This document shows, in pieces, positions 19,839 through 37,822 of a stretch of DNA of 64,000 nt. Numbering within the stretch: position 1 is the first letter of the stretch; every line of letters begins with the position of its first letter. This DNA comes from Bacteroidetes bacterium GWF2_33_38 (GTDB lineage Bacteria; Bacteroidota; Bacteroidia; Bacteroidales; GWF2-33-38). The notes below the pieces were generated by a model that searched no databases, had not been told where the DNA came from, and worked only from the letters and a program-made list of their open reading frames with translations. Made by a program: the position numbers and the translations under genes. Where the stretch lies: the NCBI GenBank assembly GCA_001769505.1, contig MEOF01000053.1:1-64000 (forward strand). Reading direction: 5' to 3'.

Positions 19839-20408
19839 TTGACCGATTTAAAAACCACTATAACAAAGGAAGAAATTACTGAACTTCCCTTAATTAGTTT
19901 TGCCGGAGACATTCTTGTTATCGACTCACTCAACGGAATTGACGAAATTATTGACGAAATTAAAACCCAACGTGTATTAGGATTTGATACAGAAAGTAAA
20001 CCTGCTTTTAAAAAAAATGTTCCAAACAAACTTTCTTTAATTCAAATTTCAAGTGAATTCAAAGCATACCTTTTTCGAGTCAATAAAATTGGATTCCCCG
20101 ATAGCCTAATCAGACTATTGTCGGAAAAACACATTATCAAAATAGGTTTGGGAATACAACAAGATTTATCGCTTTTAAAAAAAATAAGAAATTTCGAGCC
20201 AGGAGGTTTTATCGAGCTTAAAGAAATATCGCAAAAGGCAGGTGTTGAAGACTTTAGTTTGGTTAAACTTGCGGCAATTATTTTAAATCATCGAGTTTCT
20301 AAATCACAACAATTATCAAATTGGGATCGCGAAATGCTAAGCGAAGCACAAATCAGATATGCTGCAACCGATGCTTGGTTATGCTTGAAAATTGCTAACG
20401 AACTTTAG
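19839..20408 (+). CDS. 3'-5' exonuclease, RNase D-like DEDD family
   Basis: A 189-residue DEDD-type exonuclease without the HRDC domain of full RNase D. Exo I is GFDTESKP (Asp and Glu ligands), Exo II is in GLGIQQDLSLLKK, and Exo III is RYAATDAWLCL, with the tyrosine that defines the DEDDy subgroup. It probably trims structured RNA or DNA 3' ends using two metal ions. The start appears to be TTG at 19839, one base after the DUF5063 stop; no in-frame ATG precedes Exo I. Downstream lies the accessory region with the NACHT gene. Confidence 0.88.
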   Translation: MTDLKTTITKEEITELPLISFAGDILVIDSLNGIDEIIDEIKTQRVLGFDTESKPAFKKNVPNKLSLIQISSEFKAYLFRVNKIGFPDSLIRLLSEKHIIKIGLGIQQDLSLLKKIRNFEPGGFIELKEISQKAGVEDFSLVKLAAIILNHRVSKSQQLSNWDREMLSEAQIRYAATDAWLCLKIANEL

Positions 20409-20590
20409 ATAAGATTATTACAACATACGTTTTCTTCAAACTTACAAAACGACATTAGGTTAAACTATTCAGAATATCGTTTACACAATATAGCTTTCTT
20501 ATATTAGGGTTTATACCGAATAATTTTTTAGAGAAAAATTCAAATAGTTCGACCACTTTGGAGCCATACAAATCTTTAAATTTTAGCATA
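20409..20590. other. AT-rich intergenic DNA, no gene seen
   Basis: About 180 bases between the exonuclease stop and a MITE-like repeat. I see no convincing coding frame, RNA or terminator in it. Confidence 0.5.
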
Positions 20591-20741
20591 TAATACCAAT
20601 TCTATTTCCATATGACACGTATGTGATTTTTTAGATTCCCTTTTTCAAGGGAATGTGCCTCAAAAAATTACCACATACCCGCAAAAGCGGGTATCTTATT
20701 TTTAAATTGTGTCGGTCACATTGAATCGTAATTGGTATAAT
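20591..20741. repeat. MITE-like palindromic element with imperfect terminal inverted repeats
   Basis: The left end TAATACCAATT...ATGACAC and the reverse complement of the right end TTATACCAATT...GTGACC agree at roughly 20 of 28 positions. Inside are two perfect 8-bp hairpins: ATTCCCTT/AAGGGAAT (20635-20654) and ATACCCGC/GCGGGTAT (20675-20694). There is no coding capacity, so any transposition would need a transposase supplied elsewhere. It marks the left side of the NACHT gene region. Confidence 0.6.
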
Positions 20742-21071
20742 TTTTTATGCGGTATAATGTCTATTGTTTATGCCATAAGCTAGTAATTGTTTTTAGAAAC
20801 AAACTGTTGAAAAGGGTTATATATGTTTACTCTTGTGTATCTATAAAAAAAATAAGGATTTCAAAAAACTCTGAAACCCTTGTTTATCTAAGTCGGCTCA
20901 AGGGTGCACATTTCGAACGATTTTATAAGGGATTTAAAGCTAATAGAAACATTTTGCGACATGTTTTTGCGTTAAGCTACAAACACAAACTTATTCGGCA
21001 ATACAAATGTTCGAAATGAAAATTGGGTTAAATATAATATTTTTGATAGCTTGCAATAAAAAGATTCAAAG
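20742..21071. other. Leader region upstream of the NACHT gene
   Basis: About 330 bases without a supported gene. A 90-codon open frame (20747-21019, plus strand) has an unusual basic, Arg/Lys/Tyr-rich composition, no signal peptide and no recognisable motif; I do not consider it coding. No TAnnTTTG promoter was found close to the NACHT start. Confidence 0.45.
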
Positions 21072-24000
21072 ATGAAATACATTGAACCAAATTTTCGCTT
21101 ATTAGATTCTGTTAATGATTTGAAGATTAATTATAATGAAGTTTTATTATCATTAAGTCAGACTAATAGTTTTCTAAAATTTAAAGATTTTTATAATCAT
21201 CAATATATAGTTTTTTTATCTGACCCTGGAAATGGTAAAAGTAGGGTACTGAAAGAAATAATTAAGAATGCCAATAAATACGGAAAAGAAGGAATTTATA
21301 TTGATTTAAAGAAAATAAAAAAAAATATTTCAATTAAAGACTATATTTTAGAGGTTCAAAATGATGCAAAAGTCATAACTGATAATTTTGAAAATAAGTA
21401 TGGTTTAAGCTTAAAAACGGACTATTTTAAATTTGAAGATGATAAAAAAAACATTGTTTGTTTGGATGCTTTAGATGAAGTACAAAATAATCAATACGAA
21501 ATTATAGAAAAAATCGAAAAATTTTGTAATGATTGTCCAAATGTTTCTGTTTACATTTCATGCAGGTCTTATATTTATGAAAAATATTCTATTTTATTTA
21601 ATGGATTATTTCCAATGTTAATAGATATAAAACCATTAACTCATGAGCAAATAAAGAATTATTTAACAGCAGAATCAATAAACGAGACCGAAATAAATAA
21701 AATAATAAAATCCTTCTTTAAAAATGGAAGGATTGAAGTGATAGATTCGCCAAGAGTTCTTGAGATTTTTGTTTCATTATTTAAAACCGAAGGAGTTGAT
21801 AAGGTACTTTCCAAATCAAAAGCTGAATTACTTGAAACATTTATTTATAAAAAATTATATATTGAGGACGAAAAATTTGAAACTAATTATAAGGAAATAA
21901 TTAAAAGAGTATTGGAAACACTTGCATTGACAATGCAAATCAATCAAAAACATGTAATTACAAAAGAAGAATTAATGTCTTTTTTTATTGATGCAAAATC
22001 AAACCTTAGTAATAGCTTTTTACATCAGGTAAAAATTGATGTTTTCTATGACCATAGCCTTTTGATTCCTTCGGACAATACCATAAAATTTGAAAATGTT
22101 GAATTTCAGGAATATCTTGCTGCAAAAGAAATTGTTAGATTTGGAAAAGCGGATCAAGTGCTTTATGAGTTAATTTTTGATAAAGAATTAAATGAGTTTT
22201 ATCCTTTTTGGAACAATACTGTAAAATATGTAATCGACTTTGATTTAACTATTCACGACAAAATAATTGAATTTATTTATAAAAGGAAGAATAAATTAGA
22301 TGCAAGCATTTTAAACTATTGTATAAGAACAGAAAAAAAACAATTAGCAAGTGTTCAGGATAACATAAAAGAAAAAAACTTTAAATACATTTTTGAATAT
22401 TATTTAGAATGCTTAAAATCATTTGATTATCATATCATTTTCAATTTGCAGCATTACTATACAGATGAAATAGATAAATATTTAATTGACTACTATAAAG
22501 AACAGAAAGAGGAATATCAGGTTAATCTCATCTTAGGAATCGTCAAAAATTTATTATCAAGCGAGTTGATTGCCGATAAAAACTATTGGAAAAATGAAGC
22601 TTTAAAGCTTATTAAGAAATATAAGTCAGATAATGGAATTGGAATACAAATGAATTGCATTGAAATATTGTCTTGCTTTAAAAATATAAACTTAATAACT
22701 GAAAACTTTAATTATGAGGATTTACGGGATTCACTAAAAAATACGTTTATAGAAGCTTGTGTAAAAGTAGCTCCAAATGATATATCTGTAATTAAAAGAA
22801 CAATAGATTATTATGTAAATCATGATAATTATGTTCGTCTTGAGAACTTATTTTCAAACTCAAAAGAATCGAAAAGTATTATTACGATTCTAAATAACTT
22901 AATCTCAAATAGAGAGTTCCGAAATAAAATTGGTTCAGATTCCCAATTTACAGATAGTTTTTTAGATAACATTAAAAATGTTTGGGACAAAAAAATTGAG
23001 AAATTGATAATTAAGCTATTGGTTGAATCTCACGATTTTGTGTTTTGGGACGAATTTGCTAAAAAATTCTCGTGCTTATTACAGGAAAAAAATAGCAACT
23101 TTATTTATAACTTGATTGATGAAATTATTAAAAATACTGGAAAAAGCCATCAATTTGATTTGATAAATTTACTCATAGAATTAATAACTTTAAATAATGC
23201 GACACAAATAGCGGAAATATTTATTGAAAAAAAGCAAAAAGAAATAGGAGCAAAAGTATTTTCTTGGTTAAATTATAATAAATCTGGGTTCTATGAAATA
23301 GGAAATAGGTATTTTTTAGATATATACTCAAAATATCATTCGAATACAATTGATAAATTAGAACAAGTAAGCTTTAATCCATACAAAATATTTTTAGAAA
23401 ATTTAAAAACCAAATCTGGAGATATTTTCAGGTTTTATAATACTCATAAAGTAAAAATAAAAGAAAATATTAGTCCTGCAGAAAGTACCGAATTAAAAAA
23501 TTTAATTGTCAATATTATTCTTAAATATGATTTTAGTAAAGCATCAATAACACAAGAAGGCAATACTATTTATCGTGCCGACATAATTCGTTATTTTGAA
23601 GATGCTTTGTCATTGTTTGAAGACCTAAAAATTGAACAAGCATTATATAGAAAAAAAATAATTGAATTTTTTCCTTTTGCTTTTACGAATGATGATTCTA
23701 AAATTTTCGATTTGCTACCAAATTTAACCAGCGATGAAATTGATAGTATTGTCGAATTTTATTCAACTGAACGAACCGATGATTTATTAACAGTAAATAT
23801 TGGAAAACTATTTTCGTTTTGCAGAAGATATAACACTGAAAAAGTACTTATGTTGCTAAAATCATTTGTTTTAAATGATAAGATAAGAGGGAATGATAGA
23901 ATACAATCAATAGAAATTAATAATATTATTAAACCCGATAAAGATTTTTTTAATGAGGTTTTTAATTTATACAAAGATTTCTCTAATGAAACAGAAAAGA

Positions 24001-24956
24001 TTTTAGCATATAGAGCAAATGAATATTTAATTTATTTAAACGATTCTAATGCTATAAAATGGCGACTGAATGAGATAAAAACTACGACAAAAGACTTAGG
24101 AATTTTACATTTGCCTTTAACGAAGGTAACTGATTCTTCGTTTTCAAAAGACTATTTAGACCTTCTTGAATTTGCTACAAAATTAGATTCTTCAAAATCT
24201 GGTCAAGTATTTTCAATATGTGGTACTGTAATAAGCTATTTCGACAATTTGAAAATTTATAAATCAACTCAATATTTAAAGCAATTAGATGATTTTATTT
24301 CAAAGTATCAAGATTTGAAATGGATTTATAACTTAACCGAAGGGTATAATAGAATAAGAGTAAACTACTTAAATTATGCCTGTGTACCATCATCTTTTTC
24401 AGAATGTATTCAAAAATATAATTTATTAAAAGAAAAGCAATTTTTAACCGTTAACTCGCCAGAAACACTTTGGTATATTATTCAAGATGCAATTGATAAA
24501 GATATTAGAAATTGGGTTGAAAATGAAGGTGCTTATAAGGTAATAAAAGATTTAAGTGAAAAAGGAGAGACACTAATTCAAAAGACTTTAAAAGGGCAAT
24601 TAGAACTTGCATTAATTAAAAGAGGTTTTAGACCAAACGAATTACGCATAAAAAGAGAAGAACAGTTACTAAATGACAAAAAGCCAGATTTTACAATTTG
24701 TTACGGATTTATTGGTCAAATTCTAATTGAAATTAAGAGAAATTACATTAAAGATGTTAATTCAGGAAGTGAAGATTATAAAAGTATACTCGAACAATAT
24801 ATTACGGGTTCTAGTTCTAATTATGGTATCTTTTTAATATTTCAAACAGATGAAGAAAATAAATTAAGTAAGATTTTGCCCAAACTAGAAAAAACATACT
24901 CTGGAAATCATAATATAAAGATAATAGGGATTGATTGTCTCTGCGAAAAACAATAA
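21072..24956 (+). CDS. NACHT-family NTPase with C-terminal PD-(D/E)xK nuclease-like domain
   Basis: A 1294-residue solitary protein. Residues about 45-220 form a NACHT/STAND NTPase: a P-loop FLSDPGNGKSR (first Gly of the classical motif replaced by Ser), Walker B with the NACHT-type acidic cluster VCLDALDEV near 128-137, and SCRSYIYEKY as the sensor-like motif. Residues about 230-1150 are helical and look like an extended repeat solenoid, expected for ligand sensing. The last 130 residues contain KGQLELALIKRGF, KKPDFTI and ILIEIKRNY, matching the E...D...ExK pattern of PD-(D/E)xK nucleases (Asp near 1205, Glu-x-Lys near 1219-1221). NACHT proteins act in bacterial anti-phage immunity; activation of the nuclease upon phage sensing is inferred. 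There is no partner gene, and base composition looks more A+T-rich than its neighbours. Confidence 0.8.
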   Translation: MKYIEPNFRLLDSVNDLKINYNEVLLSLSQTNSFLKFKDFYNHQYIVFLSDPGNGKSRVLKEIIKNANKYGKEGIYIDLKKIKKNISIKDYILEVQNDAKVITDNFENKYGLSLKTDYFKFEDDKKNIVCLDALDEVQNNQYEIIEKIEKFCNDCPNVSVYISCRSYIYEKYSILFNGLFPMLIDIKPLTHEQIKNYLTAESINETEINKIIKSFFKNGRIEVIDSPRVLEIFVSLFKTEGVDKVLSKSKAELLETFIYKKLYIEDEKFETNYKEIIKRVLETLALTMQINQKHVITKEELMSFFIDAKSNLSNSFLHQVKIDVFYDHSLLIPSDNTIKFENVEFQEYLAAKEIVRFGKADQVLYELIFDKELNEFYPFWNNTVKYVIDFDLTIHDKIIEFIYKRKNKLDASILNYCIRTEKKQLASVQDNIKEKNFKYIFEYYLECLKSFDYHIIFNLQHYYTDEIDKYLIDYYKEQKEEYQVNLILGIVKNLLSSELIADKNYWKNEALKLIKKYKSDNGIGIQMNCIEILSCFKNINLITENFNYEDLRDSLKNTFIEACVKVAPNDISVIKRTIDYYVNHDNYVRLENLFSNSKESKSIITILNNLISNREFRNKIGSDSQFTDSFLDNIKNVWDKKIEKLIIKLLVESHDFVFWDEFAKKFSCLLQEKNSNFIYNLIDEIIKNTGKSHQFDLINLLIELITLNNATQIAEIFIEKKQKEIGAKVFSWLNYNKSGFYEIGNRYFLDIYSKYHSNTIDKLEQVSFNPYKIFLENLKTKSGDIFRFYNTHKVKIKENISPAESTELKNLIVNIILKYDFSKASITQEGNTIYRADIIRYFEDALSLFEDLKIEQALYRKKIIEFFPFAFTNDDSKIFDLLPNLTSDEIDSIVEFYSTERTDDLLTVNIGKLFSFCRRYNTEKVLMLLKSFVLNDKIRGNDRIQSIEINNIIKPDKDFFNEVFNLYKDFSNETEKILAYRANEYLIYLNDSNAIKWRLNEIKTTTKDLGILHLPLTKVTDSSFSKDYLDLLEFATKLDSSKSGQVFSICGTVISYFDNLKIYKSTQYLKQLDDFISKYQDLKWIYNLTEGYNRIRVNYLNYACVPSSFSECIQKYNLLKEKQFLTVNSPETLWYIIQDAIDKDIRNWVENEGAYKVIKDLSEKGETLIQKTLKGQLELALIKRGFRPNELRIKREEQLLNDKKPDFTICYGFIGQILIEIKRNYIKDVNSGSEDYKSILEQYITGSSSNYGIFLIFQTDEENKLSKILPKLEKTYSGNHNIKIIGIDCLCEKQ

Positions 24957-25018
24957 TAACCATCATTCGTAAAAAAATCCCATTTCGAACAATAAAAGTG
25001 AATTCTGTATTTTCTGCA

Positions 25019-25039
25019 ATCGCCCAACCAGTGGGCGAT
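25019..25039. repeat. Perfect 8-bp hairpin downstream of the NACHT gene
   Basis: ATCGCCCA-ACCAG-TGGGCGAT, a strong stem 63 bases after the NACHT stop. It has no T-run on the plus strand, so it may stabilise the 3' end of the mRNA or be a small repeat. Confidence 0.5.
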
Positions 25040-25048
25040 ACAGAGAAT

Positions 25049-25091
25049 AAAAAAAGCCGGACAAATTCAAGTTTTTTGAATCAGTCCGGCT
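25049..25091 (-). terminator. Rho-independent terminator of tRNA-Pro(GGG)
   Basis: On the minus strand, directly after the tRNA, AGCCGGAC and GTCCGGCT form an 8-bp GC-rich stem with an inner ATTCAA/TTGAAT pairing, followed by a run of seven T. Confidence 0.8.
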
Positions 25092-25168
25092 TGGTCGGGG
25101 TGAGAAGACTCGAACTTCCGACCCCTTGCACCCCATGCAAGTACGCTAGCCAACTGCGCCACACCCCG
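25092..25168 (-). tRNA. tRNA-Pro, anticodon GGG
   Basis: Reading the minus strand, the acceptor stem CGGGGTG/CACCCCG is perfect, with discriminator A and an encoded CCA end. The D stem is GCGC/GCGT, the T arm GGAAG-TTCGAGT-CTTCT. The anticodon stem CTTGC/GCAAG encloses the loop ATGGGGT, so the anticodon is GGG. C1-G72 and the A32/U38 pair are features of tRNA-Pro(GGG). Its 3' end faces the NACHT gene. Confidence 0.92.
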
Positions 25169-25288
25169 ATTTTGTTACAAAAGTATATCAAGTATAATTA
25201 ATCTGCAAAAAAAACAGTAGATTTACGCTTGGTATATTTTTTGAAAACATACCTGCGAAAAGGTTAAAATTACAGCGAAAACACTAGC

Positions 25289-27646
25289 ATGTCCGTAAAA
25301 ATAATAATTCTTCTAATTACATTAACTGCCATTTGTTCAGTATTATTTGCCCAAAAATATACAATTAGTGGCTATGTTCGTGAAAAATCGTCAGGTGAGG
25401 ATTTGATAGGTGCAAATATTTATGCAAAAGAAATTTCTAAAGGAACAACCAGCAATCAATACGGTTTTTATTCATTATCTCTTGAAAAAGGAAAATATTC
25501 CATCGTTTATTCTTTTATTGGATACGATGATTTTGTCGAAATTATAACTTTAGATAAAGACATTAAAAAAAATATTGAGTTATCGAGTTCTGTAATAACC
25601 ACCAAAGAAGTGGTAGTTGCCGCCGATAGAATCGAAAATATTGAAAGTACACAAATGGGACAAGTTCGATTACCAATCGAAAAAGTAAAAGTTATTCCTG
25701 CTTTTTTGGGCGAGATTGACGTGTTGAAAACAATTCAACTATTGCCAGGTGTAAAATCAGGAGGAGAGGGGAGTTCAGGTTTTTATGTCAGGGGTGGCGG
25801 ACCTGATCAAAATTTGATTTTACTCGACGATGCTACTGTTTATAATGCCTCGCATCTTTTTGGATTTTTTTCGGTTTTTAACGCCGATGCTGTTAAAGAT
25901 ATAAATCTGATTAAAGGTGGAATGCCTGCTCAGTATGGAGGAAGGCTCTCGTCGGTTCTTGATATTACCATGAAAGATGGAAATAACAAAAAATACGAAG
26001 TTGACGGAGGTATTGGAGTTATTTCATCGCGACTTACGGTTCAAGGACCCATAAAAAAAGATACAAGTTCGTTTATAGTTTCGGCTCGACGAACATATAT
26101 TGATATTTTGGTCGATCCATTTATTAAAAAAACAGCTAAAGCTAAAGGTTCTGGTTATTATTTTTACGATTTAAATGCGAAAGCGAGTTATCGATTTTCT
26201 GATAAAGACCGATTATTTATTAGCGGATATTATGGTCGCGATGTTTTTACTTTCAAAAATAAAGAAGCTGGATTTGATGTACAAATACCTTGGGGTAATG
26301 GTATTTCGGCTTTGCGATGGAATCATTTATTTTCCGATAAGCTATTCCTAAATACAACAGCGACTTTTAGTAGCTATAAATTTAATTTTGAGGCATCTGA
26401 CGAGGATTATGAATTTAACATGTTTTCGGGAATTACCGATTATAGTATTAAGTCTGATTTCAATTATTTGCCATCGGTTCGTCACAATCTAAAATTTGGA
26501 ATATCGTACATTAAACATGTGTTTGTACCAAGTTCGGCAACAGCAAAGATTAATGAAACATCTTTTGACACTGGCGAAATTATTAAGCAACATGCTCGTG
26601 ATGCTGCCATATATATAAATGAAGATTTTGACGTAAACGAAAAATTAAAAATAAGCGGAGGAATCAGAGGAACATTTTTTCAACAAGTTGGTCCGTTTAC
26701 CCGATTTGTTAAAGATGAATACGATAAAACAATTGATACACTTTATTTCGATAAAGGAGATAATGTAAAATGGTATAAACACCTTGAACCTCGATTTTCG
26801 CTTCGATATTCAATTAACATGACTTCTTCAATAAAAGCATCGTTTACTCAAAATTATCAATACATTCATTTGGCAACCATATCTTCAGCTTCGATGCCTA
26901 CCGATTTGTGGATTCCGAGTTCAGAAATTGTTCAGCCTCAATATGGCGTTCAATATGCATTGGGATATTTTCGAAATTTCAAAAATGATATGTTTGAAAC
27001 CTCAATTGAAGTATATTATAAAGAACTCGAAAATCAGATTGAGTACAAAGATGGAGCAAATCCAATGAATACATTTGGCGATAATTCTGATAATTTTTTC
27101 GCTTTTGGAAGCGGACAATCATACGGACTTGAATTGTTCTTAAAAAAACGGTTGGGAAAAACTACCGGTTGGATTGGATATACTTGGTCGAAAACATATC
27201 GAACATTCGAAAATTTAAATAATGGAGAGTCGTTTCCTGCAAAATATGACCGAAGACATGACATTTCTTTCATTGCAACTCATGAATTAAATGAAAAATG
27301 GGTTTTTGCAATGGTGTTTGTTTATTCTACCGGAAATGCACTAACCTTACCCGAAGGCAAATATTACATTAATGGAATGCTAGCAAATCAATACGGAAAA
27401 ATCAATTCGTACAGAATGGCTCCTTATCATAGACTGGATTTGTCGGCAACGTATTATGTTAAGAAAAACAAGAAGATTGAATCGTCGTGGAACTTTGCAG
27501 TTTTTAATGCTTACAACCGGTATAATCCATATTTTATTTATTTTGTTACCGAAGGAACATTAGCTGAAGGAAATCTTGAAACAAAAGCAAAACAAGTTTC
27601 TTTATTCCCAATTTTACCATCAATAACCTGGAATTTTAAATTTTAA
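25289..27646 (+). CDS. TonB-dependent outer-membrane receptor with carboxypeptidase-like N-terminal domain
   Basis: A 785-residue receptor. A signal peptide (through LFAQK) is followed by a CarboxypepD_reg-like beta-sandwich (ISGYVREKSSGEDLIGANI, about 25-100), the plug domain (VLKTIQLLPGVKSGGEG, FYVRGGGPDQNLILLDD) and a long beta-barrel ending in a C-terminal aromatic residue (SITWNFKF), as required by the Bam machinery. It imports an unknown ligand with energy from TonB. The next gene starts on the last base of its stop codon (TAATG), so the two form a receptor/lipoprotein pair. A SusD homologue is absent, so glycan uptake is less likely than for SusCD pairs. Confidence 0.93.
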   Translation: MSVKIIILLITLTAICSVLFAQKYTISGYVREKSSGEDLIGANIYAKEISKGTTSNQYGFYSLSLEKGKYSIVYSFIGYDDFVEIITLDKDIKKNIELSSSVITTKEVVVAADRIENIESTQMGQVRLPIEKVKVIPAFLGEIDVLKTIQLLPGVKSGGEGSSGFYVRGGGPDQNLILLDDATVYNASHLFGFFSVFNADAVKDINLIKGGMPAQYGGRLSSVLDITMKDGNNKKYEVDGGIGVISSRLTVQGPIKKDTSSFIVSARRTYIDILVDPFIKKTAKAKGSGYYFYDLNAKASYRFSDKDRLFISGYYGRDVFTFKNKEAGFDVQIPWGNGISALRWNHLFSDKLFLNTTATFSSYKFNFEASDEDYEFNMFSGITDYSIKSDFNYLPSVRHNLKFGISYIKHVFVPSSATAKINETSFDTGEIIKQHARDAAIYINEDFDVNEKLKISGGIRGTFFQQVGPFTRFVKDEYDKTIDTLYFDKGDNVKWYKHLEPRFSLRYSINMTSSIKASFTQNYQYIHLATISSASMPTDLWIPSSEIVQPQYGVQYALGYFRNFKNDMFETSIEVYYKELENQIEYKDGANPMNTFGDNSDNFFAFGSGQSYGLELFLKKRLGKTTGWIGYTWSKTYRTFENLNNGESFPAKYDRRHDISFIATHELNEKWVFAMVFVYSTGNALTLPEGKYYINGMLANQYGKINSYRMAPYHRLDLSATYYVKKNKKIESSWNFAVFNAYNRYNPYFIYFVTEGTLAEGNLETKAKQVSLFPILPSITWNFKF

Positions 27647-29806: not shown

Positions 29807-32800
29807 ATGAAACAAATCCTACTTTCTTTATTAATGCTGATTTTTGTAAATACATTGAGTTTTTCTCAATTAATTATAAGTCAGTATATCGAAACAAGTT
29901 CAGGTAGTAATCCAAAAGGTATTGAACTATGGAACAATTCAGGTGCTACCATTGACTTTTCAGTTACTGAACTTGTTGTTATGAAAGGTTCTGCTGGAGG
30001 AGCCGCAACAACAACAGATTTTACATTGAATACTGGAACATTGGCTAATGGTGCAGTAATGGTAATTGGAACTGCTCCTGATGTGTTAGGTACTGGGACA
30101 GGCTTTCAGGATTTTGTGACTGCAAACGGTTCCGCTTTCTATGTTAAAGCATTTACATTTAATGGAGATGATGCTCTAGAAATATATTTAGGTGGAGTTA
30201 TGCAAGACATTTTAGGAGATGTAATTGGAGTAGACCCAGCAGGAACTGGTTGGGCAGGCAACGGAGTTCAAACCTACAATCAAAATATTACATTGTTGTC
30301 TGGAATTACAACTGGAGCATCTACGGGTTGGACAGATCCTAGCTTACGATTTGAAGTAACAACGACTGATAATTCTTTAACTGGTTTTGGAATTGCACCA
30401 GTTACTGCATCAACAGAAACAGCTGATTGGAATAATTTGCAATGGCCAAATACAGGAACAATTTTAACCGAAGAAACGTTTGATGTTTATGCTCAGGTTT
30501 ATGAAGCAGGTGTTACCGAAGCTGCTGGTCAAGGAGCTGATATTGAAGCTTGGATAGGTTACAGCACAGATAATACTGACCCAAGCACTTGGACTAACTG
30601 GATTGCTGCAACATATTATACTGATGCTGGAAATAATGATGAATATAAAGCAAATATCGGTGCAGTTTTATCTTCTGCCGGAACTTATTACTACGCAAGT
30701 AGATTCTCAGTAGATAATGGTCCTTATACTTATGGAGGATATGTTGGAGGTACTTGGGATGGAATAACGAATGTCAGTGGAGTATTAACTGTAAACGCTC
30801 GTTGTGCAGACCCTTCAGATTTGACTATCGTTGGAACAACTACAACGTCAGCTCAAATAACATGGACTGAAAATTCTACGGCTAATGTATGGAGTGTTAA
30901 ACATGGTACAACAGGATTTGACCCGGCTACTGAAGGCACATTGCACATGGGAGCAACTGTAAGACCTTATACTATTTGGGCTTTAACTCCGGGGACAGAT
31001 TATGAATTCTATGTTGAAGCTACATGTACAACATCATGGGTTGGTCCAAAATCTTTTAGAACCATCAATACAGCAACAGATATTACAGACTTCAGTTTTG
31101 CCGAGCAAACAGGACTTGCTGTATTTAGTAATGATACAATATATATTGAAGTTACTGGAGGAACAGACCTAACAAATCTTGTTGCAACATACACATTGGC
31201 TTATGGAGCAACTGCTGATATTTTAGGTACACTTCAAGTTAGTGGTTCAACCATAAATAATTTTTCTTCATACGTTACTTACACTATAACAGCAGAAGAT
31301 GGAACTTCTACTCAAGATTGGATTATTGCTACATCTGTAGAAGGAGTTCTGTCAAGTGAAGCAAATATTTTAGCTTATTCTTTTACAGAACAAATGAGTC
31401 CTGCAGTATTTAGCAATGACACAATTTATATTACAGTGAATTCAGGAACAGACTTAACTAATCTTGTTGCAAGTTTCACACTTTCAGTAGGAGCAACAGC
31501 TGAAGTTTCTCTTAATCCTCAAGTTAGTGGAGTTACAGTAAATAATTTTTCTAGCTTTGTAATATATACGATTACCGCTGAAAATGGAACTACAACTCAA
31601 GATTGGGTTATAGCAGTATCTGAATTTGTAATTCCATACTTAATTATTAATGAAGTTGATATTGATCAAACTTCGACTGATACAAATGAGTTTATTGAAT
31701 TATTCGATGGTGGAACAGGAAATACTTCGCTTGATGGTTTTGTTATCGTTTTATATAACGGAAGTGGTGATGTTTCTTATAATGCTATTGATTTAGATGG
31801 TTACAACACTGACAATAATGGATATTTTGTAATTGGAAGTGCAACTGTATCAAATGTCGATTTAGTATCTTTCACATCAAGTAATTTACAAAATGGACCT
31901 GATGCGGTTGCATTGTATTATGATGATGCTACTAGTTTCCCAACTTCAACTCCAGTTACAGCGATTAATCTTATTGATGCAATTGTATATGGAACAAGCG
32001 ATGCACCAAATTTAACAGCAGTTCTATTAAATTCAGGAGAGCTATTCGTTAATGAAAATATGAATGGAAAAAGTACTACTGAATCAATGCAACGTATTCC
32101 AAATGGAACAGGAGGAGAAAGAAATACTTCAACCTATTTGGCAGTTTATCCAACACCTGGAACTGAGAATTTATTTCCTGAAGTTGATTGGTGTAACCTA
32201 CAATGGCCTGAAAATGGAGCAATTGCTTCAGGTACAAGTTTTAATGTATATGCACAAGTTTATGAGCCAGGTATTACCGACGCAGTTGGAGCAGGTACAG
32301 GTATTGAAGCATGGATTGGATACAATTCAACTAATATAAGTCCTGATACTTGGACAAATTGGATTCCTGCTACTTTTAATAAAGACACTACAAATAATGA
32401 CGAATTTATGTCAGAAATTGGTTCAACTTTGACAGTAGGAACATATTATTATGCAAGTAGATTTAAAGTAAACGGAGGAACATATAAATACGGCGGTTTT
32501 AATCTTGGAGGCGGAGGATTTTGGGATGGCTTCGCAAATGTAAATGGAGTTCTAACAGTTTTGAATAATGAAACAGCTGTTTTGGACTTTTCGTTTGCCG
32601 AACAAACAGGTTCAGCAACATTTAGCAACGACACCATTTATATTGAAGTTGACGCTGGGACAAATCTTTCAAACCTTGTTGCATCATTTACCTTATCTAA
32701 TGGAGCAACGGCATCTATTTTAGGAATTAATCAAGAAAGTGGTGTTACAACTAATGACTTTATTAATTTTGTTACATATACTATATTGGCAGAAGATGGC

Positions 32801-35800
32801 ATTGCAACCCAAAATTGGGTAGTATCCGTAAGTGAATATGTTTATCCGTTAGGAACTGATTGTACAAACCCATTTATGGCAATGGCAGGAACCAATACTA
32901 CTGATAATAGTGCAGGAGGTCAATGGTTTGCATATACAGCTCCCGATAATGGAGTAATTAATATTAGCTCGTGCTGTTGCACAGCTGTAGATACAAGATT
33001 ATTTGTATATCTTGACAATTGCTCCAATTTAATTATTGACGAAGATGATACAGATGGTTGTCCAGCAAATACCGAAGATGTAAATTTCTTGATTAATGCA
33101 GGAGAAACAATATATATACTATGGAATGATGATTATACAACTGCAACTTATAATTGGGAACTTTCATACAATTTGTTAAATACAGAAGCAAACATTTTAT
33201 CATTTAATTTTCCAGAAGCTACTTCGGTTGCTGTAATTGATAGCATTAATGCAAAAGTCAACATTGAGGTTGATTACCAAACTAATTTTACCAATTTGGT
33301 TGCTAATTATACTCTTTCTAACGGTGCGATAGCTGAAGTTTTGGGAGTAGAACAAGAAAGTGGTGTAACATCCAACGATTTTAGTTCTTCAGTTATATAC
33401 AAAGTAATTGCACAAGATACTACTTATCAAAGAGATTGGACTGTTAACGTAAGCGAAAGAGTACCTTCTTCGGAAGCAGAAATCTTATGGTTTTCTTTCC
33501 CTGAAGCACTTAACCCAGCTACATTCGACTTTATTAATCATACGATTAATATTGAAGTGGGTATGGGAACTAGTTTAACAGCTTTAACAGCATACTTTAA
33601 CTTATCAAATGGAGCAACAGCAGAAATAGCAGGAATTCCTCAGACTAGCGGAACAACACAAAACGATTTTTCTGTTCCGGTTACATATATCATTACAGCC
33701 GAAGACGGAATCGCATTTAATGAATGGCTTGTTACCGTTACTGTTGCAACATCATTGAACGATCAAGCAGATATTCTTTGGTTTAATTTAAATGAAGCAA
33801 CGGGTACTGCTGTTATGGACAACATGAACCATGAAATTTCAATCGAAGTTACTTGGGATACCGATTTATCAAATCTTGTTGCCGACTTTAATTTGTCTTA
33901 CGGTGCTACTGCAAGCATATTGGGAATATCACAAGAATCGGGTGTTACGGTAAATAATTTTAGTTCTCCGATAACTTATACAGTAGTTTCTGAAGATGGT
34001 ATGGTAACCAATGATTGGGAAGTAACAGTTTACAATGCTCCAATTCCAGCTGGTATCGTTTGCGAATCGGCAGTTGAAGCTTATCAGGGAATGAATTATG
34101 CAAGCCATGCAAATGCAACCGATGAATGGTTCTTCTTTGTTGCTCAAGAATCAGGGTATTTGACGTTAAATACTTGTGGACTTGCAATTTTTGATACATA
34201 CGTAATTACTTATTCTGATTGTGGAACTTATTTAAGCGAATCAGATGACGATTGTGGAGGTACATACCAATCTAATCTAACTGTACCTATGGTTGCCGGC
34301 GATACAATCTGGATTGAATGGGATTACGATACTTATAATCCGGATGGTTATAATTGGGAATTAACGTATTATGTTCCAAATACCGAAAATGATATTATTT
34401 CATTTAGTTTTGCCGAGCAAACTAGTCCTGCAGTAATTGATTATAATAACAATACAATTGCGGTTGAAGTAGTTTATGGGACAGATGTTACAAACTTAAT
34501 TGCAAGTTTTGATTTATCAAATTATGCTAGTGCAAATATTGGAGGCGTACCTCAAAATTCGTCAACAACCATAAACGACTTTACAAATACGGTAATTTAT
34601 ACTGTTGTTGCTGAAAACGGCGATATTCAAGATTGGTCGGTTAATGTTTCTGTACGTCCTTTAACCAATGATTTGATGGTTATATTCCCAGAAGGAGGAA
34701 ATAATACGATGTGTGATTTAACAACAATGAATGTTCCTCTAGGAATTTTTAACAATGGAGATTTTTCAGTTCCAATGGGAGATAGCATATTTGTTTATTA
34801 CAATGTTAATGCAGAACCTAATGTTGAAGATACAATTGTTTTGGCAGCAGATTTTGCTGTTGGCGACACTATGTTTTTTCAATTTCCAGACGCTTACGAT
34901 TTTTCTGCATTAGGTTTTTACGATTATGCAATAGGTTTTGAATATGAAAATGATACTATCGCAACAAATAATGTTACTATAGGTCAAATCAATCATATCG
35001 TATTAACTGTAAGTATTAACGAAGGAGATTCAATACAAATACATGCATCTAGTTTCCCTTATACCTTAACACTTAGTGATAATTACAATGATTATCATTG
35101 GTACAATAGTAATATGACCATGAACGGAAACAACAACCAATTTGAAATTTATGATTTTGGTTGGTATTATATTGAAGTAGATAATGGAGACGGATGTAAT
35201 GCAATAGACTCGATTTTTGTAGAATCTACACCGCCATTTGTTGATTTAGCTATATCTCAACCAAGTCATGGAGAATATTATCAAGCTTGCGAATTAACCG
35301 ATAATCAATCTATAGATTTTAGAATACGAAATGTTGGAGAAGTCTCTATTAATGCAGGAGAAACTATTGAATGTTCATATTTTATTACTGGAAATTCCTT
35401 GGTGTCAGAACAATTTATATTACCAACGAATTTAAATCCTGGTGATGAAATCTCGTATTTATTTACTCAAACTGCAGATTTGTCGGCAATAGGAGTGTAT
35501 GCTTGGACATTTGGAATAAGTTATGTTAACGATATGGATGAAAACAACAATCATGTACAAGGAGCAACTGAGCATGTTCAATACACTGTTGAAATTGAGC
35601 AAGGCGACACCATCTATGCTTATGGTTTTGAACTTCCTATTCGATTAAACACAACTGAATGGAATGACAATTATCTTTGGTATGATGAAACCTTAGCTTC
35701 TGTTACAACATCAGAATATTATGCAAATTCATTTGGTTGGCATTATGTTGAAGTATCGAGCAATAATATGTTTGGTTGTACTGCTATTGATTCGGTTTTA

Positions 35801-37822
35801 ATTATTGAAAGATCTCAAGTAAATTTAGACGTGGCATTGGTTGGAGATATACCATCAGGAATGTTTTCATTTTCGACTTGTCCCGATTTAGTTGAAGATT
35901 TGAGCTATATGATTGCGAATGCAGGTTTAACTACAATTCCAGCAGGCGATACTATATATTTTGAATCGCAATTAGATATAGAACCTATGTTATTCGATAC
36001 CTTGATTTTATCTTCAGATTTACTTTCGGGTGAAACATATGAATATCAAACTCAGCATGTTTTAGATATAACTGCACTTGGTTCTCACACTTTTACTTTA
36101 AATGTAATTTTTGAGGGAGATCTTGATTTATCAAACAATACAGCAATAATTAATTTAGAAGTTGTAAATGCTCCTACAGTTGAAATTGCAAATGTTGTTG
36201 GCGATACACTAGAAGTATATGCATATCAATATCCTATTGAATTATCGTTGACAAACGTATTCGATTGGTACAATTGGAATGGAAATTCAGGAAATGGAAA
36301 CGAAACATCTTATGAAGTTTCTTCCGAAGGCTGGGTATATGTTAGAGCTGGACTAAATAATATTGATTGCAACAGTCAAGACTCTATTTTTATTTCAACT
36401 ATTTCGCCTATTTCTTTAGATTTAGCTATATTCCAACCTCAAAGCAATGATTATGTTGGTTGTGATTTAGGTGTTGATTCTATGGAGTTTACATTCATTA
36501 ATGCAGGAATAAATACGATTCCTTCAGGTACATTAATAAGTCTTGGTTATCAAATAGACTCAAATCTTGAAGTAATTGAAAATGTAACTTTAACCGAAGA
36601 TTTAACCTCTGGAAGTACATATGATTATCAGTTTAGTCAACCATTTGATTTTTCTGCTATTGCAATATATGATTGGAAATTCTTTGTAAATGTTGCAGGA
36701 GATTTGAATTTTGCTAACGATACAACCATGGGAACATACGAACACACAACAATTGATGTTCAAATCGATGCTCCTGACACTATTTACGCTGATTTGACAG
36801 ACTTTCCAATACATCTTTCATCGTTGAATATACATGATCAATATACATGGTTTGCCAATGGAAATCAAGTAAGCAATGCTGCTGAAATGGATGTTTATGC
36901 ATATGGAGTATATCATTTATATGCTCAATTCGATAACAGCAATTGTAGTGGAATGGATTCGGTTTACATTATGCCAACTCCGCAATTGAGTTATGATATT
37001 GGATACGATAGTGAAAGTTACAGTCTATTTGAATGTGGATTATCAACTCATCAAATACCTTTCCCAATTATTAATTATGGAGAAGAAGATATTCAAATTG
37101 GGGATACCATTTACATTAGTATTCAACTTGATGGCGGTGCTGTTGTAAACGAAGAGTTTGTTTTAGATACTATTTTCCCTTCAAATAGCTATATTTTTTA
37201 TGAAACACAAAACATGTTTGATTTAAGTGCCGCATTGCATACTTATCATTTTGATATCGAAATGAATATGACGAATGATGAAAATTTATCGAATAATATT
37301 TTTAGCATTGAAATCACAAATGCTATTTATGACCTTGATTTAGATGCAATTAATGGAGGCTCAAATGATACCTTAACTGTTTCTTCATTTCCTGTTACTT
37401 TAGACGCAGGTGCTGGATATGAATCATATTTATGGAGTACAGTTGAAACAACTCAAACAATCGAAGTTAGTGTAAATGGCTGGTATTATGCTGAAATTTA
37501 TAACGATGGAAATTGTTATTCAGAAGATTCAATTTATGTGAATTTATTTGTTGGAATTAATGAATTGATAGCTAAATCAGCAATCGGTTTATATCCAAAT
37601 CCAAATAATGGAAACTTTGTATTGAATATTAAAAATGCAAAAACATCTGATATTAGAATCGAAATGCTTGATTTTATTGGAAAAGTAATTTCTGTTAAAG
37701 AAATATCAAATGTTGATACTCATATCGAAGAATTTGATGTAAATATTTTACCAAAAGGAATTTATTTTGTTAAAGTTTCAAATTCAAGTGATGTTATGAT
37801 TGAAAGAGTAATTATTCAATAA
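29807..37822 (+). CDS. Giant modular secreted protein (2671 aa) with LTD, seven DUF5018-like modules and T9SS sorting domain
   Basis: A signal peptide (through SLSFSQ) is followed by a lamin-tail-like domain (IISQYIETSSGSNPKGIELW, residues about 20-130) and a fibronectin III-like region near 340-425. A second LTD-like domain (LIINEVDIDQTSTDTNEFIE) starts near 608. Seven copies of an approximately 85-residue module with the pattern FSFAEQ, GTDLTNLVA, YTITAEDGT and QDW occur at about 425, 520, 927, 1130, 1225, 1320 and 1528; they resemble DUF5018. From about 1618 five larger units of about 190 residues repeat (DLAI..., YDFSALG, DTIYA..., WYY.EV). The C-terminus from about 2590 (GLYPNPNNGNFVLNI, KGIYFVKVSN) is a T9SS type A domain. 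Probably a surface adhesin or filament; no catalytic domain seen. Confidence 0.88.
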   Translation: MKQILLSLLMLIFVNTLSFSQLIISQYIETSSGSNPKGIELWNNSGATIDFSVTELVVMKGSAGGAATTTDFTLNTGTLANGAVMVIGTAPDVLGTGTGFQDFVTANGSAFYVKAFTFNGDDALEIYLGGVMQDILGDVIGVDPAGTGWAGNGVQTYNQNITLLSGITTGASTGWTDPSLRFEVTTTDNSLTGFGIAPVTASTETADWNNLQWPNTGTILTEETFDVYAQVYEAGVTEAAGQGADIEAWIGYSTDNTDPSTWTNWIAATYYTDAGNNDEYKANIGAVLSSAGTYYYASRFSVDNGPYTYGGYVGGTWDGITNVSGVLTVNARCADPSDLTIVGTTTTSAQITWTENSTANVWSVKHGTTGFDPATEGTLHMGATVRPYTIWALTPGTDYEFYVEATCTTSWVGPKSFRTINTATDITDFSFAEQTGLAVFSNDTIYIEVTGGTDLTNLVATYTLAYGATADILGTLQVSGSTINNFSSYVTYTITAEDGTSTQDWIIATSVEGVLSSEANILAYSFTEQMSPAVFSNDTIYITVNSGTDLTNLVASFTLSVGATAEVSLNPQVSGVTVNNFSSFVIYTITAENGTTTQDWVIAVSEFVIPYLIINEVDIDQTSTDTNEFIELFDGGTGNTSLDGFVIVLYNGSGDVSYNAIDLDGYNTDNNGYFVIGSATVSNVDLVSFTSSNLQNGPDAVALYYDDATSFPTSTPVTAINLIDAIVYGTSDAPNLTAVLLNSGELFVNENMNGKSTTESMQRIPNGTGGERNTSTYLAVYPTPGTENLFPEVDWCNLQWPENGAIASGTSFNVYAQVYEPGITDAVGAGTGIEAWIGYNSTNISPDTWTNWIPATFNKDTTNNDEFMSEIGSTLTVGTYYYASRFKVNGGTYKYGGFNLGGGGFWDGFANVNGVLTVLNNETAVLDFSFAEQTGSATFSNDTIYIEVDAGTNLSNLVASFTLSNGATASILGINQESGVTTNDFINFVTYTILAEDGIATQNWVVSVSEYVYPLGTDCTNPFMAMAGTNTTDNSAGGQWFAYTAPDNGVINISSCCCTAVDTRLFVYLDNCSNLIIDEDDTDGCPANTEDVNFLINAGETIYILWNDDYTTATYNWELSYNLLNTEANILSFNFPEATSVAVIDSINAKVNIEVDYQTNFTNLVANYTLSNGAIAEVLGVEQESGVTSNDFSSSVIYKVIAQDTTYQRDWTVNVSERVPSSEAEILWFSFPEALNPATFDFINHTINIEVGMGTSLTALTAYFNLSNGATAEIAGIPQTSGTTQNDFSVPVTYIITAEDGIAFNEWLVTVTVATSLNDQADILWFNLNEATGTAVMDNMNHEISIEVTWDTDLSNLVADFNLSYGATASILGISQESGVTVNNFSSPITYTVVSEDGMVTNDWEVTVYNAPIPAGIVCESAVEAYQGMNYASHANATDEWFFFVAQESGYLTLNTCGLAIFDTYVITYSDCGTYLSESDDDCGGTYQSNLTVPMVAGDTIWIEWDYDTYNPDGYNWELTYYVPNTENDIISFSFAEQTSPAVIDYNNNTIAVEVVYGTDVTNLIASFDLSNYASANIGGVPQNSSTTINDFTNTVIYTVVAENGDIQDWSVNVSVRPLTNDLMVIFPEGGNNTMCDLTTMNVPLGIFNNGDFSVPMGDSIFVYYNVNAEPNVEDTIVLAADFAVGDTMFFQFPDAYDFSALGFYDYAIGFEYENDTIATNNVTIGQINHIVLTVSINEGDSIQIHASSFPYTLTLSDNYNDYHWYNSNMTMNGNNNQFEIYDFGWYYIEVDNGDGCNAIDSIFVESTPPFVDLAISQPSHGEYYQACELTDNQSIDFRIRNVGEVSINAGETIECSYFITGNSLVSEQFILPTNLNPGDEISYLFTQTADLSAIGVYAWTFGISYVNDMDENNNHVQGATEHVQYTVEIEQGDTIYAYGFELPIRLNTTEWNDNYLWYDETLASVTTSEYYANSFGWHYVEVSSNNMFGCTAIDSVLIIERSQVNLDVALVGDIPSGMFSFSTCPDLVEDLSYMIANAGLTTIPAGDTIYFESQLDIEPMLFDTLILSSDLLSGETYEYQTQHVLDITALGSHTFTLNVIFEGDLDLSNNTAIINLEVVNAPTVEIANVVGDTLEVYAYQYPIELSLTNVFDWYNWNGNSGNGNETSYEVSSEGWVYVRAGLNNIDCNSQDSIFISTISPISLDLAIFQPQSNDYVGCDLGVDSMEFTFINAGINTIPSGTLISLGYQIDSNLEVIENVTLTEDLTSGSTYDYQFSQPFDFSAIAIYDWKFFVNVAGDLNFANDTTMGTYEHTTIDVQIDAPDTIYADLTDFPIHLSSLNIHDQYTWFANGNQVSNAAEMDVYAYGVYHLYAQFDNSNCSGMDSVYIMPTPQLSYDIGYDSESYSLFECGLSTHQIPFPIINYGEEDIQIGDTIYISIQLDGGAVVNEEFVLDTIFPSNSYIFYETQNMFDLSAALHTYHFDIEMNMTNDENLSNNIFSIEITNAIYDLDLDAINGGSNDTLTVSSFPVTLDAGAGYESYLWSTVETTQTIEVSVNGWYYAEIYNDGNCYSEDSIYVNLFVGINELIAKSAIGLYPNPNNGNFVLNIKNAKTSDIRIEMLDFIGKVISVKEISNVDTHIEEFDVNILPKGIYFVKVSNSSDVMIERVIIQ

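What the first reader, a model, noticed from the sequence alone, without database searches (positions are those of the whole stretch)
21072..24956. Solitary NACHT NTPase with a C-terminal PD-(D/E)xK nuclease-like domain
The sequence shows a NACHT core (FLSDPGNGKSR; VCLDALDEV) and, at the far C-terminus, KKPDFTI...ILIEIKRNY, the pattern of a PD-(D/E)xK nuclease. In the characterised bacterial NACHT/Avs proteins I know of, the effector is mostly N-terminal and the C-terminal repeats sense phage proteins. Here the order appears reversed, and there is no partner gene. It may be an anti-phage system with an unusual layout, in which the long helical middle senses and the C-terminus cuts DNA.
Basis: partly seen in the sequence, partly recalled or inferred. 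Interest (0 to 1): 0.8.

Follow-up and report, generated by a model that had tools for sequence, protein, structure and literature searches.

The report
NACHT immune receptor with C-terminal nuclease
A Bacteroidales genome carries a lone gene for a large immune-receptor-like protein (a relative of animal NLR proteins) whose DNA-cutting part sits at the tail end instead of the usual front; the same layout is present in two recently named anti-phage protein families, so this is a new, third family of a known kind of defence protein rather than something without precedent.

Summary
One intact 1294-codon gene (21072-24956, +) encodes a NACHT NTPase at the very N-terminus, about 820 residues of helical HEAT-like solenoid, and a C-terminal PD-(D/E)xK domain. 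Across ten sequences (23-35% identity to the window protein) from several phyla and a plasmid, the invariant residues cluster in the NTPase and the C-terminal domain, while the middle is nearly free to vary. AlphaFold2 gives the restriction-endonuclease topology for the tail. For residues 1-1165 the best structural match is Avs4 bound to a phage portal, followed by NLRP3 and NOD2. There is no N-terminal effector domain. The claim that the layout is unusual needs correcting: NCBIfam's named anti-phage NACHT proteins HyoA and EruA have the same order of parts when read directly. The window protein is related to both but falls far below their cut-offs, so it belongs to a separate, sparse, widely scattered family. 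Most likely mechanism: the solenoid senses an infection signal, the NACHT oligomerises, and the clustered C-terminal nucleases cut DNA. Phage protection and nuclease activity were not tested. Verdict: a real feature and a new member of a known kind.

The parts
21072..24956 (+). Whole gene, 1294 aa: NACHT NTPase - helical solenoid - C-terminal PD-(D/E)xK
   Evidence: ORF list; single copy in genome; ten-sequence full-length alignment
21072..21200 (+). Short N-terminal leader (residues 1-43), no room for an effector domain
   Evidence: NTPase strand 1 begins at residue 45 in the model; the aligned relatives have similarly short leaders
21213..21245 (+). Walker A, FLSDPGNGKSR (residues 48-58; G53, G55, K56 invariant)
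21459..21479 (+). Walker B / NACHT signature CLDALDE (residues 130-136, all invariant)
21564..21566 (+). Invariant Arg165 (sensor-like, in SCR)
21819..22121 (+). NACHT helical and winged-helix part (about residues 250-350), ending in EFxNxEFQEYLAA-like motif
   Evidence: alignment; helices and beta hairpin 331-340 in model
22098..24560 (+). Helical HEAT/ARM-like solenoid (about residues 343-1163), fast evolving between 401 and 850; proposed sensor
   Evidence: secondary structure of model, pLDDT 82; conservation by 50-residue blocks; solenoid matches CAND1, SF3b, Kap121
24567..24953 (+). C-terminal PD-(D/E)xK nuclease domain (residues 1166-1294)
   Evidence: AlphaFold2 topology; HyoA profile match; alignment with HyoA and EruA tails
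24657..24659 (+). Glu1196, invariant acidic residue at the end of nuclease strand 1
24687..24689 (+). Asp1206, predicted catalytic Asp of PD
24729..24737 (+). Glu1220-Ile-Lys1222, predicted catalytic ExK
25092..25168 (-). tRNA-Pro (ggg) whose 3' end faces the gene; possible insertion landmark, no duplicated 3' end found

Best explanation
The gene encodes a single-protein, NLR-like anti-phage receptor with an inverted layout. The N-terminal NACHT NTPase is the switch, the fast-evolving helical solenoid recognises a sign of infection, and the C-terminal PD-(D/E)xK domain is the effector. On recognition the NACHT exchanges nucleotide and oligomerises, bringing several C-terminal nuclease domains together; these then cut DNA, stopping phage replication and probably costing the cell. 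Shown here: the domains, their order, conservation of the NTPase and nuclease active sites, the solenoid's variability, the absence of an N-terminal effector, and kinship to named anti-phage NACHT families. Inferred: the trigger, oligomerisation, DNA as the substrate, and phage protection.
For: Invariant Walker A, LDALDE and R165, and invariant E1196, D1206, E1220, K1222 and Y1243, in ten sequences with 23-35% identity to the window protein. Residues 1-1165: best PDB match Avs4 with phage portal (E 3.3e-7), then NLRP3 and NOD2. Tail: restriction-endonuclease topology, pLDDT 79, with EcoO109I, MUS81, XPF, FokI and a Pyrococcus repair endonuclease among its weak Foldseek matches. Related by profile to EruA (1.3e-10) and HyoA (6.8e-7, matching the C-terminal domain). 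Scattered distribution: one of 395 genomes of the phylum, the window's own, yet relatives in several phyla and on plasmids. Some relatives lie in defence neighbourhoods: between HsdS and HsdM genes (L030), and beside SocA/Panacea, HNH and PIN genes (L028).
Against: No experiment. Foldseek matches of the tail are weak (best nuclease E 8e-3) and clamp-loader AAA proteins rank first. No Pfam nuclease family reaches its cut-off. The window's own neighbourhood holds no recognised defence gene. EruA members L014 and L015 have Ala where the catalytic Asp is expected, so nuclease activity is not guaranteed throughout the wider class. I found no paper describing HyoA or EruA.
Confidence: 0.7

Rival explanations
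1. Same receptor architecture, but the main target is plasmids or other mobile DNA rather than phage (or DNA ends and modifications recognised directly by the C-terminal part), so it works more like an NTP-dependent restriction enzyme than an abortive-infection receptor.
For: One relative (L034) carries a HARE-HTH-like module after the nuclease, a domain found with restriction endonucleases; PMC10853773 proposes that HARE-HTH fused to REase discriminates modified DNA. Another relative sits between HsdS and HsdM genes.
Against: No target-recognition or methylase partner is linked to the window gene. The HARE-HTH match is below Pfam's cut-off and seen in one of ten members. The variable part is a protein-binding-type solenoid, not a DNA-recognition domain.
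Confidence: 0.15
2. The C-terminal domain keeps the nuclease fold but acts on RNA, or only binds nucleic acid; the response is RNA damage or signalling instead of DNA cleavage.
For: PD-(D/E)xK-fold proteins with other substrates are known (own knowledge). Two EruA members lack the catalytic Asp.
Against: All catalytic residues are invariant in this family, including relatives at 23-26% identity. Among the weak matches of the tail are DNA nucleases such as EcoO109I, MUS81, XPF and FokI. N-terminal PD-(D/E)xK domains of bNACHT25 and bNACHT32 degrade DNA on activation (PMC12169576).
Confidence: 0.1
3. The gene is a general stress or regulatory STAND protein of the host with no role in defence.
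For: Its immediate neighbours in the window are housekeeping or surface-protein genes.
Against: Missing from the two genomes of the same family and from almost all genomes of the order and phylum, while relatives occur in several phyla and on plasmids. G+C is 24-25% against 30-35% around it. Kin to named anti-phage proteins.
Confidence: 0.05

Closest known systems
HyoA, NACHT domain-containing antiphage protein (NCBIfam NF058534)
   Same: NACHT NTPase near the N-terminus, long helical middle, C-terminal PD-(D/E)xK with the EE..KKPD...ELK...QL..Y...GIF pattern, read in a full-length member (L071, 1723.6 bits). The window tail matches the HyoA profile.
   Different: The window protein scores 27.3 bits against a cut-off of 1200; its NTPase and middle are too divergent to belong to the same equivalog.
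EruA, NACHT domain-containing antiphage protein (NCBIfam NF058535)
   Same: Same order of domains; profile match E 1.3e-10, present in all ten members of the window's family; profile-profile alignment over residues 33-680.
   Different: 40.1 bits against a cut-off of 1000. The two EruA members above the cut-off have Ala in place of the catalytic Asp.
Avs4 / AVAST receptors
   Same: Best structural match of residues 1-1165 is Avs4 bound to a phage portal protein (8dgf, E 3.3e-7); STAND switch plus long helical sensor.
   Different: Avs effectors are N-terminal (own knowledge; general statement in PMC10907252); here the effector is C-terminal and the N-terminus is the NTPase itself. PADLOC gives no hit for the window protein.
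bNACHT25 / bNACHT32 (clade 6 bNACHT with N-terminal PD-(D/E)xK)
   Same: NACHT plus PD-(D/E)xK DNase effector in one protein; DNA degradation on activation shown (PMC12169576).
   Different: The nuclease is N-terminal there and C-terminal here.
[quoted passage not shown]
   Different: Different NTPase branch by that description; the window protein has NACHT signatures and a long HEAT-like middle. Not compared by sequence here.

Membership tests
NACHT clade of STAND NTPases | Walker A and Walker B with a small residue after the Mg-binding Asp and paired acids (LDALDE) | tested here: met
   Invariant in ten sequences
NACHT clade of STAND NTPases | Match to Pfam NACHT model above its cut-off | tested here: inconclusive
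   Window protein itself only NPHP3_N at 0.013; seven of the ten aligned sequences match PF05729 (best 1e-7)
NACHT clade of STAND NTPases | Fold of NACHT plus winged helix | tested here: met
   Avs4, NLRP3 and NOD2 among top structural matches, E 3e-7 to 9e-6
PD-(D/E)xK nuclease superfamily | Catalytic Asp and (D/E)xK conserved in relatives | tested here: met
   D1206, E1220, K1222 invariant in ten sequences
PD-(D/E)xK nuclease superfamily | Alpha-beta-beta-beta-alpha-beta core fold | tested here: met
   Predicted topology
PD-(D/E)xK nuclease superfamily | Significant match to a solved nuclease or curated nuclease family | tested here: inconclusive
   Foldseek best nuclease E 8e-3; no Pfam family at cut-off; no sequence match in PDB
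PD-(D/E)xK nuclease superfamily | Nuclease activity | not testable with these tools
   Needs biochemistry
HyoA (NF058534) | Curated full-length score of at least 1200 bits | tested here: not met
   27.3 bits
EruA (NF058535) | Curated full-length score of at least 1000 bits | tested here: not met
   40.1 bits
HyoA/EruA-type layout (N-terminal NACHT, C-terminal PD-(D/E)xK) | Order of domains and alignable C-terminal catalytic domain | tested here: met
   Alignment of tails; profile matches to both ends
Avs/AVAST and bNACHT with N-terminal effector | Effector domain N-terminal to the NTPase | tested here: not met
   NTPase strand 1 starts at residue 45; short leaders in the aligned relatives; no PADLOC match
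Anti-phage defence system | Protection against phage | not testable with these tools
   Needs plaque assays

The most novel reading that the evidence does not exclude
Bacterial NACHT receptors with the effector at the C-terminus form a broad class (this family, HyoA, EruA and the further protein L017) in which activation must be transmitted through, or around, the sensing solenoid to its far end, a different activation geometry from the Avs/NLR rule that effectors sit N-terminal to the NTPase and assemble at the hub.
Probability: 0.4. Interest if true: 0.62.

Novelty: new member of a known kind. Interest (0 to 1): 0.42.

Why it matters
Literature read here describes STAND defence proteins by one rule: effector at the N-terminus, sensor at the C-terminus. 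This family, with HyoA and EruA, is an exception that recurs across phyla and on plasmids. It makes a concrete question testable: how a NACHT oligomer switches on a nuclease placed at the other end of its sensor. It also gives annotators a third profile, because neither Pfam nor PADLOC detects the window protein as a nuclease or a defence protein.

Tried and rejected
A hidden N-terminal effector: rejected, the NTPase begins at residue 45 and the leaders are short. A chance PD-(D/E)xK look-alike: the loose motif is indeed at chance level, but invariance across relatives and the predicted fold reject chance. Pseudogene: rejected, one intact 1294-codon frame. Partner gene: the neighbours of relatives listed by ORF show no gene shared with the window; inspected by eye, not a formal test. 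The 90-aa ORF just upstream (20747-21019) matches no Pfam or PADLOC family and only a weak, meaningless NCBIfam one. Insertion by a tRNA-targeting element: no duplicated tRNA 3' end in 20300-25350. Empty site in same-family genomes: not resolved; the flanking genes lie on separate short contigs and the receptor gene of G001 follows a tRNA-Ser. Viral carriage: none found in phage or viral collections. Tree for horizontal transfer: too few starred branches to decide; the Bacteroidota rows need only one change. Literature on HyoA/EruA: none found. A first genome-collection scan with the single sequence failed; the three-sequence alignment found twelve loci.

Full report
OBSERVATION. The ORF list gives one intact frame at 21072-24956 on the + strand, 1294 aa. 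It is the only such gene in its genome. The gene lies in a G+C trough of 24-25% against 30-35% around it, between a 3'-5' exonuclease gene (ends 20408) and tRNA-Pro (25092-25168, minus strand), followed by a TonB-type receptor. The genome is placed in Bacteroidales because the same-order genome G083 holds the contig that the public collection titles Bacteroidales bacterium UBA6680.

IS IT MORE THAN CHANCE? The loose motif is not: the protein has 19 D-x(8-22)-[DE]-x-K matches and shuffles average 19.1. A strict form occurs once, at 1205, and appears in the last 150 residues of 0.15% of shuffles. The real test is comparative. A three-sequence alignment retrieved twelve loci from genomes labelled Bacteroidota, Nitrospirota, Planctomycetota, Calditrichota and Clostridiales (and one weak Dehalococcoidia match); two Arcobacter plasmids carry another relative. 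In the ten-sequence alignment (window plus nine relatives) Walker A, CLDALDE, R165, E1166, E1196, D1206, E1220, K1222 and Y1243 are invariant. Invariant positions are 6.4% in residues 42-400, 0.8% in 401-1147 and 9.5% in 1148-1294, and identity drops to 11-21% between residues 401 and 850.

STRUCTURE. AlphaFold2 on the tail (residues 1090-1294, nine sequences) gives pLDDT 79 and helix 1166-1183, strand 1191-1195, strand 1207-1211, strand 1216-1223, helix 1234-1246, strand 1251-1258: the PD-(D/E)xK core, with D1206 entering the second strand and E1220/K1222 in the third. Foldseek matches of this model are weak; they include EcoO109I, MUS81, XPF, FokI and a Pyrococcus repair endonuclease, but also clamp-loader AAA proteins at the top, so the fold call rests on topology plus conserved residues. 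The model of residues 1-1165 (pLDDT 82) is an NTPase with winged helix followed by helices to the end. Its best PDB match is Avs4 bound to a phage portal, then NLRP3 and NOD2, then HEAT solenoids such as CAND1 and SF3b. No domain precedes the NTPase.

KIN. NCBIfam matches are EruA (40.1 bits, cut-off 1000) and HyoA (27.3 bits, cut-off 1200). All ten family members match EruA and six match HyoA at E 0.01 or better. Reading HyoA and EruA themselves shows the same order of domains: HyoA L071 (1723.6 bits) ends in EEELADAKKPDLRFHGMGFDGPVPGELKLAD; the EruA-like L016 and L072 end in DKRADIRISYESDIAIPIEIK and EKRADIAIYYKHMKLPIEIK; L017, related to both, ends in EKPDIIVE...LIIEVK. The two EruA members above the cut-off (L014, L015) have Ala at the Asp position. 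Profile-profile comparison with the EruA set aligns residues 33-680 (E 7.4e-8). So the window's family is a third branch of C-terminal-nuclease NACHTs, not a member of either named family.

CONTEXT OF RELATIVES. L028 sits with SocA/Panacea, HNH and PIN genes and L030 lies between HsdS and HsdM genes of a type I system. HyoA L071 is on a Rhizobium plasmid with a SIR2-family gene nearby. The family is rare: the window's genome alone in 395 of the phylum, two of 99 relatives, three of 393 genomes of the order with the tail profile, one of these a 468-aa protein without NACHT. No phage or viral contig matched.

MECHANISM. Shown by sequence and model: order of domains, conserved active sites, variable solenoid, no N-terminal effector. 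Inferred by analogy with Avs and bNACHT25 (the latter degrades DNA through an N-terminal PD-(D/E)xK domain, PMC12169576): recognition by the solenoid, NTP-driven oligomerisation, DNA cleavage. The open mechanical question is how the far end of the solenoid is activated.

LITERATURE. PMC12169576 and PMC10907252 state the usual N-terminal-effector layout. [quoted passage not shown] I found no paper on HyoA or EruA in the library, so their anti-phage role rests on NCBI's family names.

VERDICT. New member of a known kind, interest 0.42.

Noticed in passing
window 20590-20747: A MITE-like element of about 155 bp with imperfect terminal inverted repeats (20590-20616 / 20715-20741), present in at least 40 copies at 93-99% identity across this genome; the search stopped at 40 scored of 93 candidates. 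It lies upstream of the NACHT gene.
   Followed up: partly
L034 4685-4891: The Bacteroidales UBA6680 relative carries a HARE-HTH-like module after the nuclease (E 1.8e-4, below Pfam's cut-off), a domain found with restriction endonucleases.
   Followed up: partly
L014 and L015, C-terminal domain: EruA members above the curated cut-off have Ala at the position of the catalytic Asp (KRAAIRI), while the lower-scoring L016, L025 and L072 keep Asp.
   Followed up: no
L012 7932-11977 and L013 7932-11978: Two near-identical Arcobacter plasmids: the relative is one ORF in DSM 115972 but annotated as two ORFs in AZ-2023, so one copy is probably broken or holds a sequencing error.
   Followed up: no
L080 424-1830: A 468-aa protein without NACHT matches the tail profile (3.5e-6) and shows GELDFKF...VIIEVK, suggesting that the nuclease domain also occurs in other contexts.
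   Followed up: no
window 29807-37822: A 2671-aa secreted repeat protein with DUF5018, fn3 and a type IX secretion C-terminal sorting domain.
   Followed up: no
L072 14284-15591: An EruA-like gene on a Vibrio campbellii plasmid lies about 4 kb from a site-specific integrase gene.
   Followed up: no
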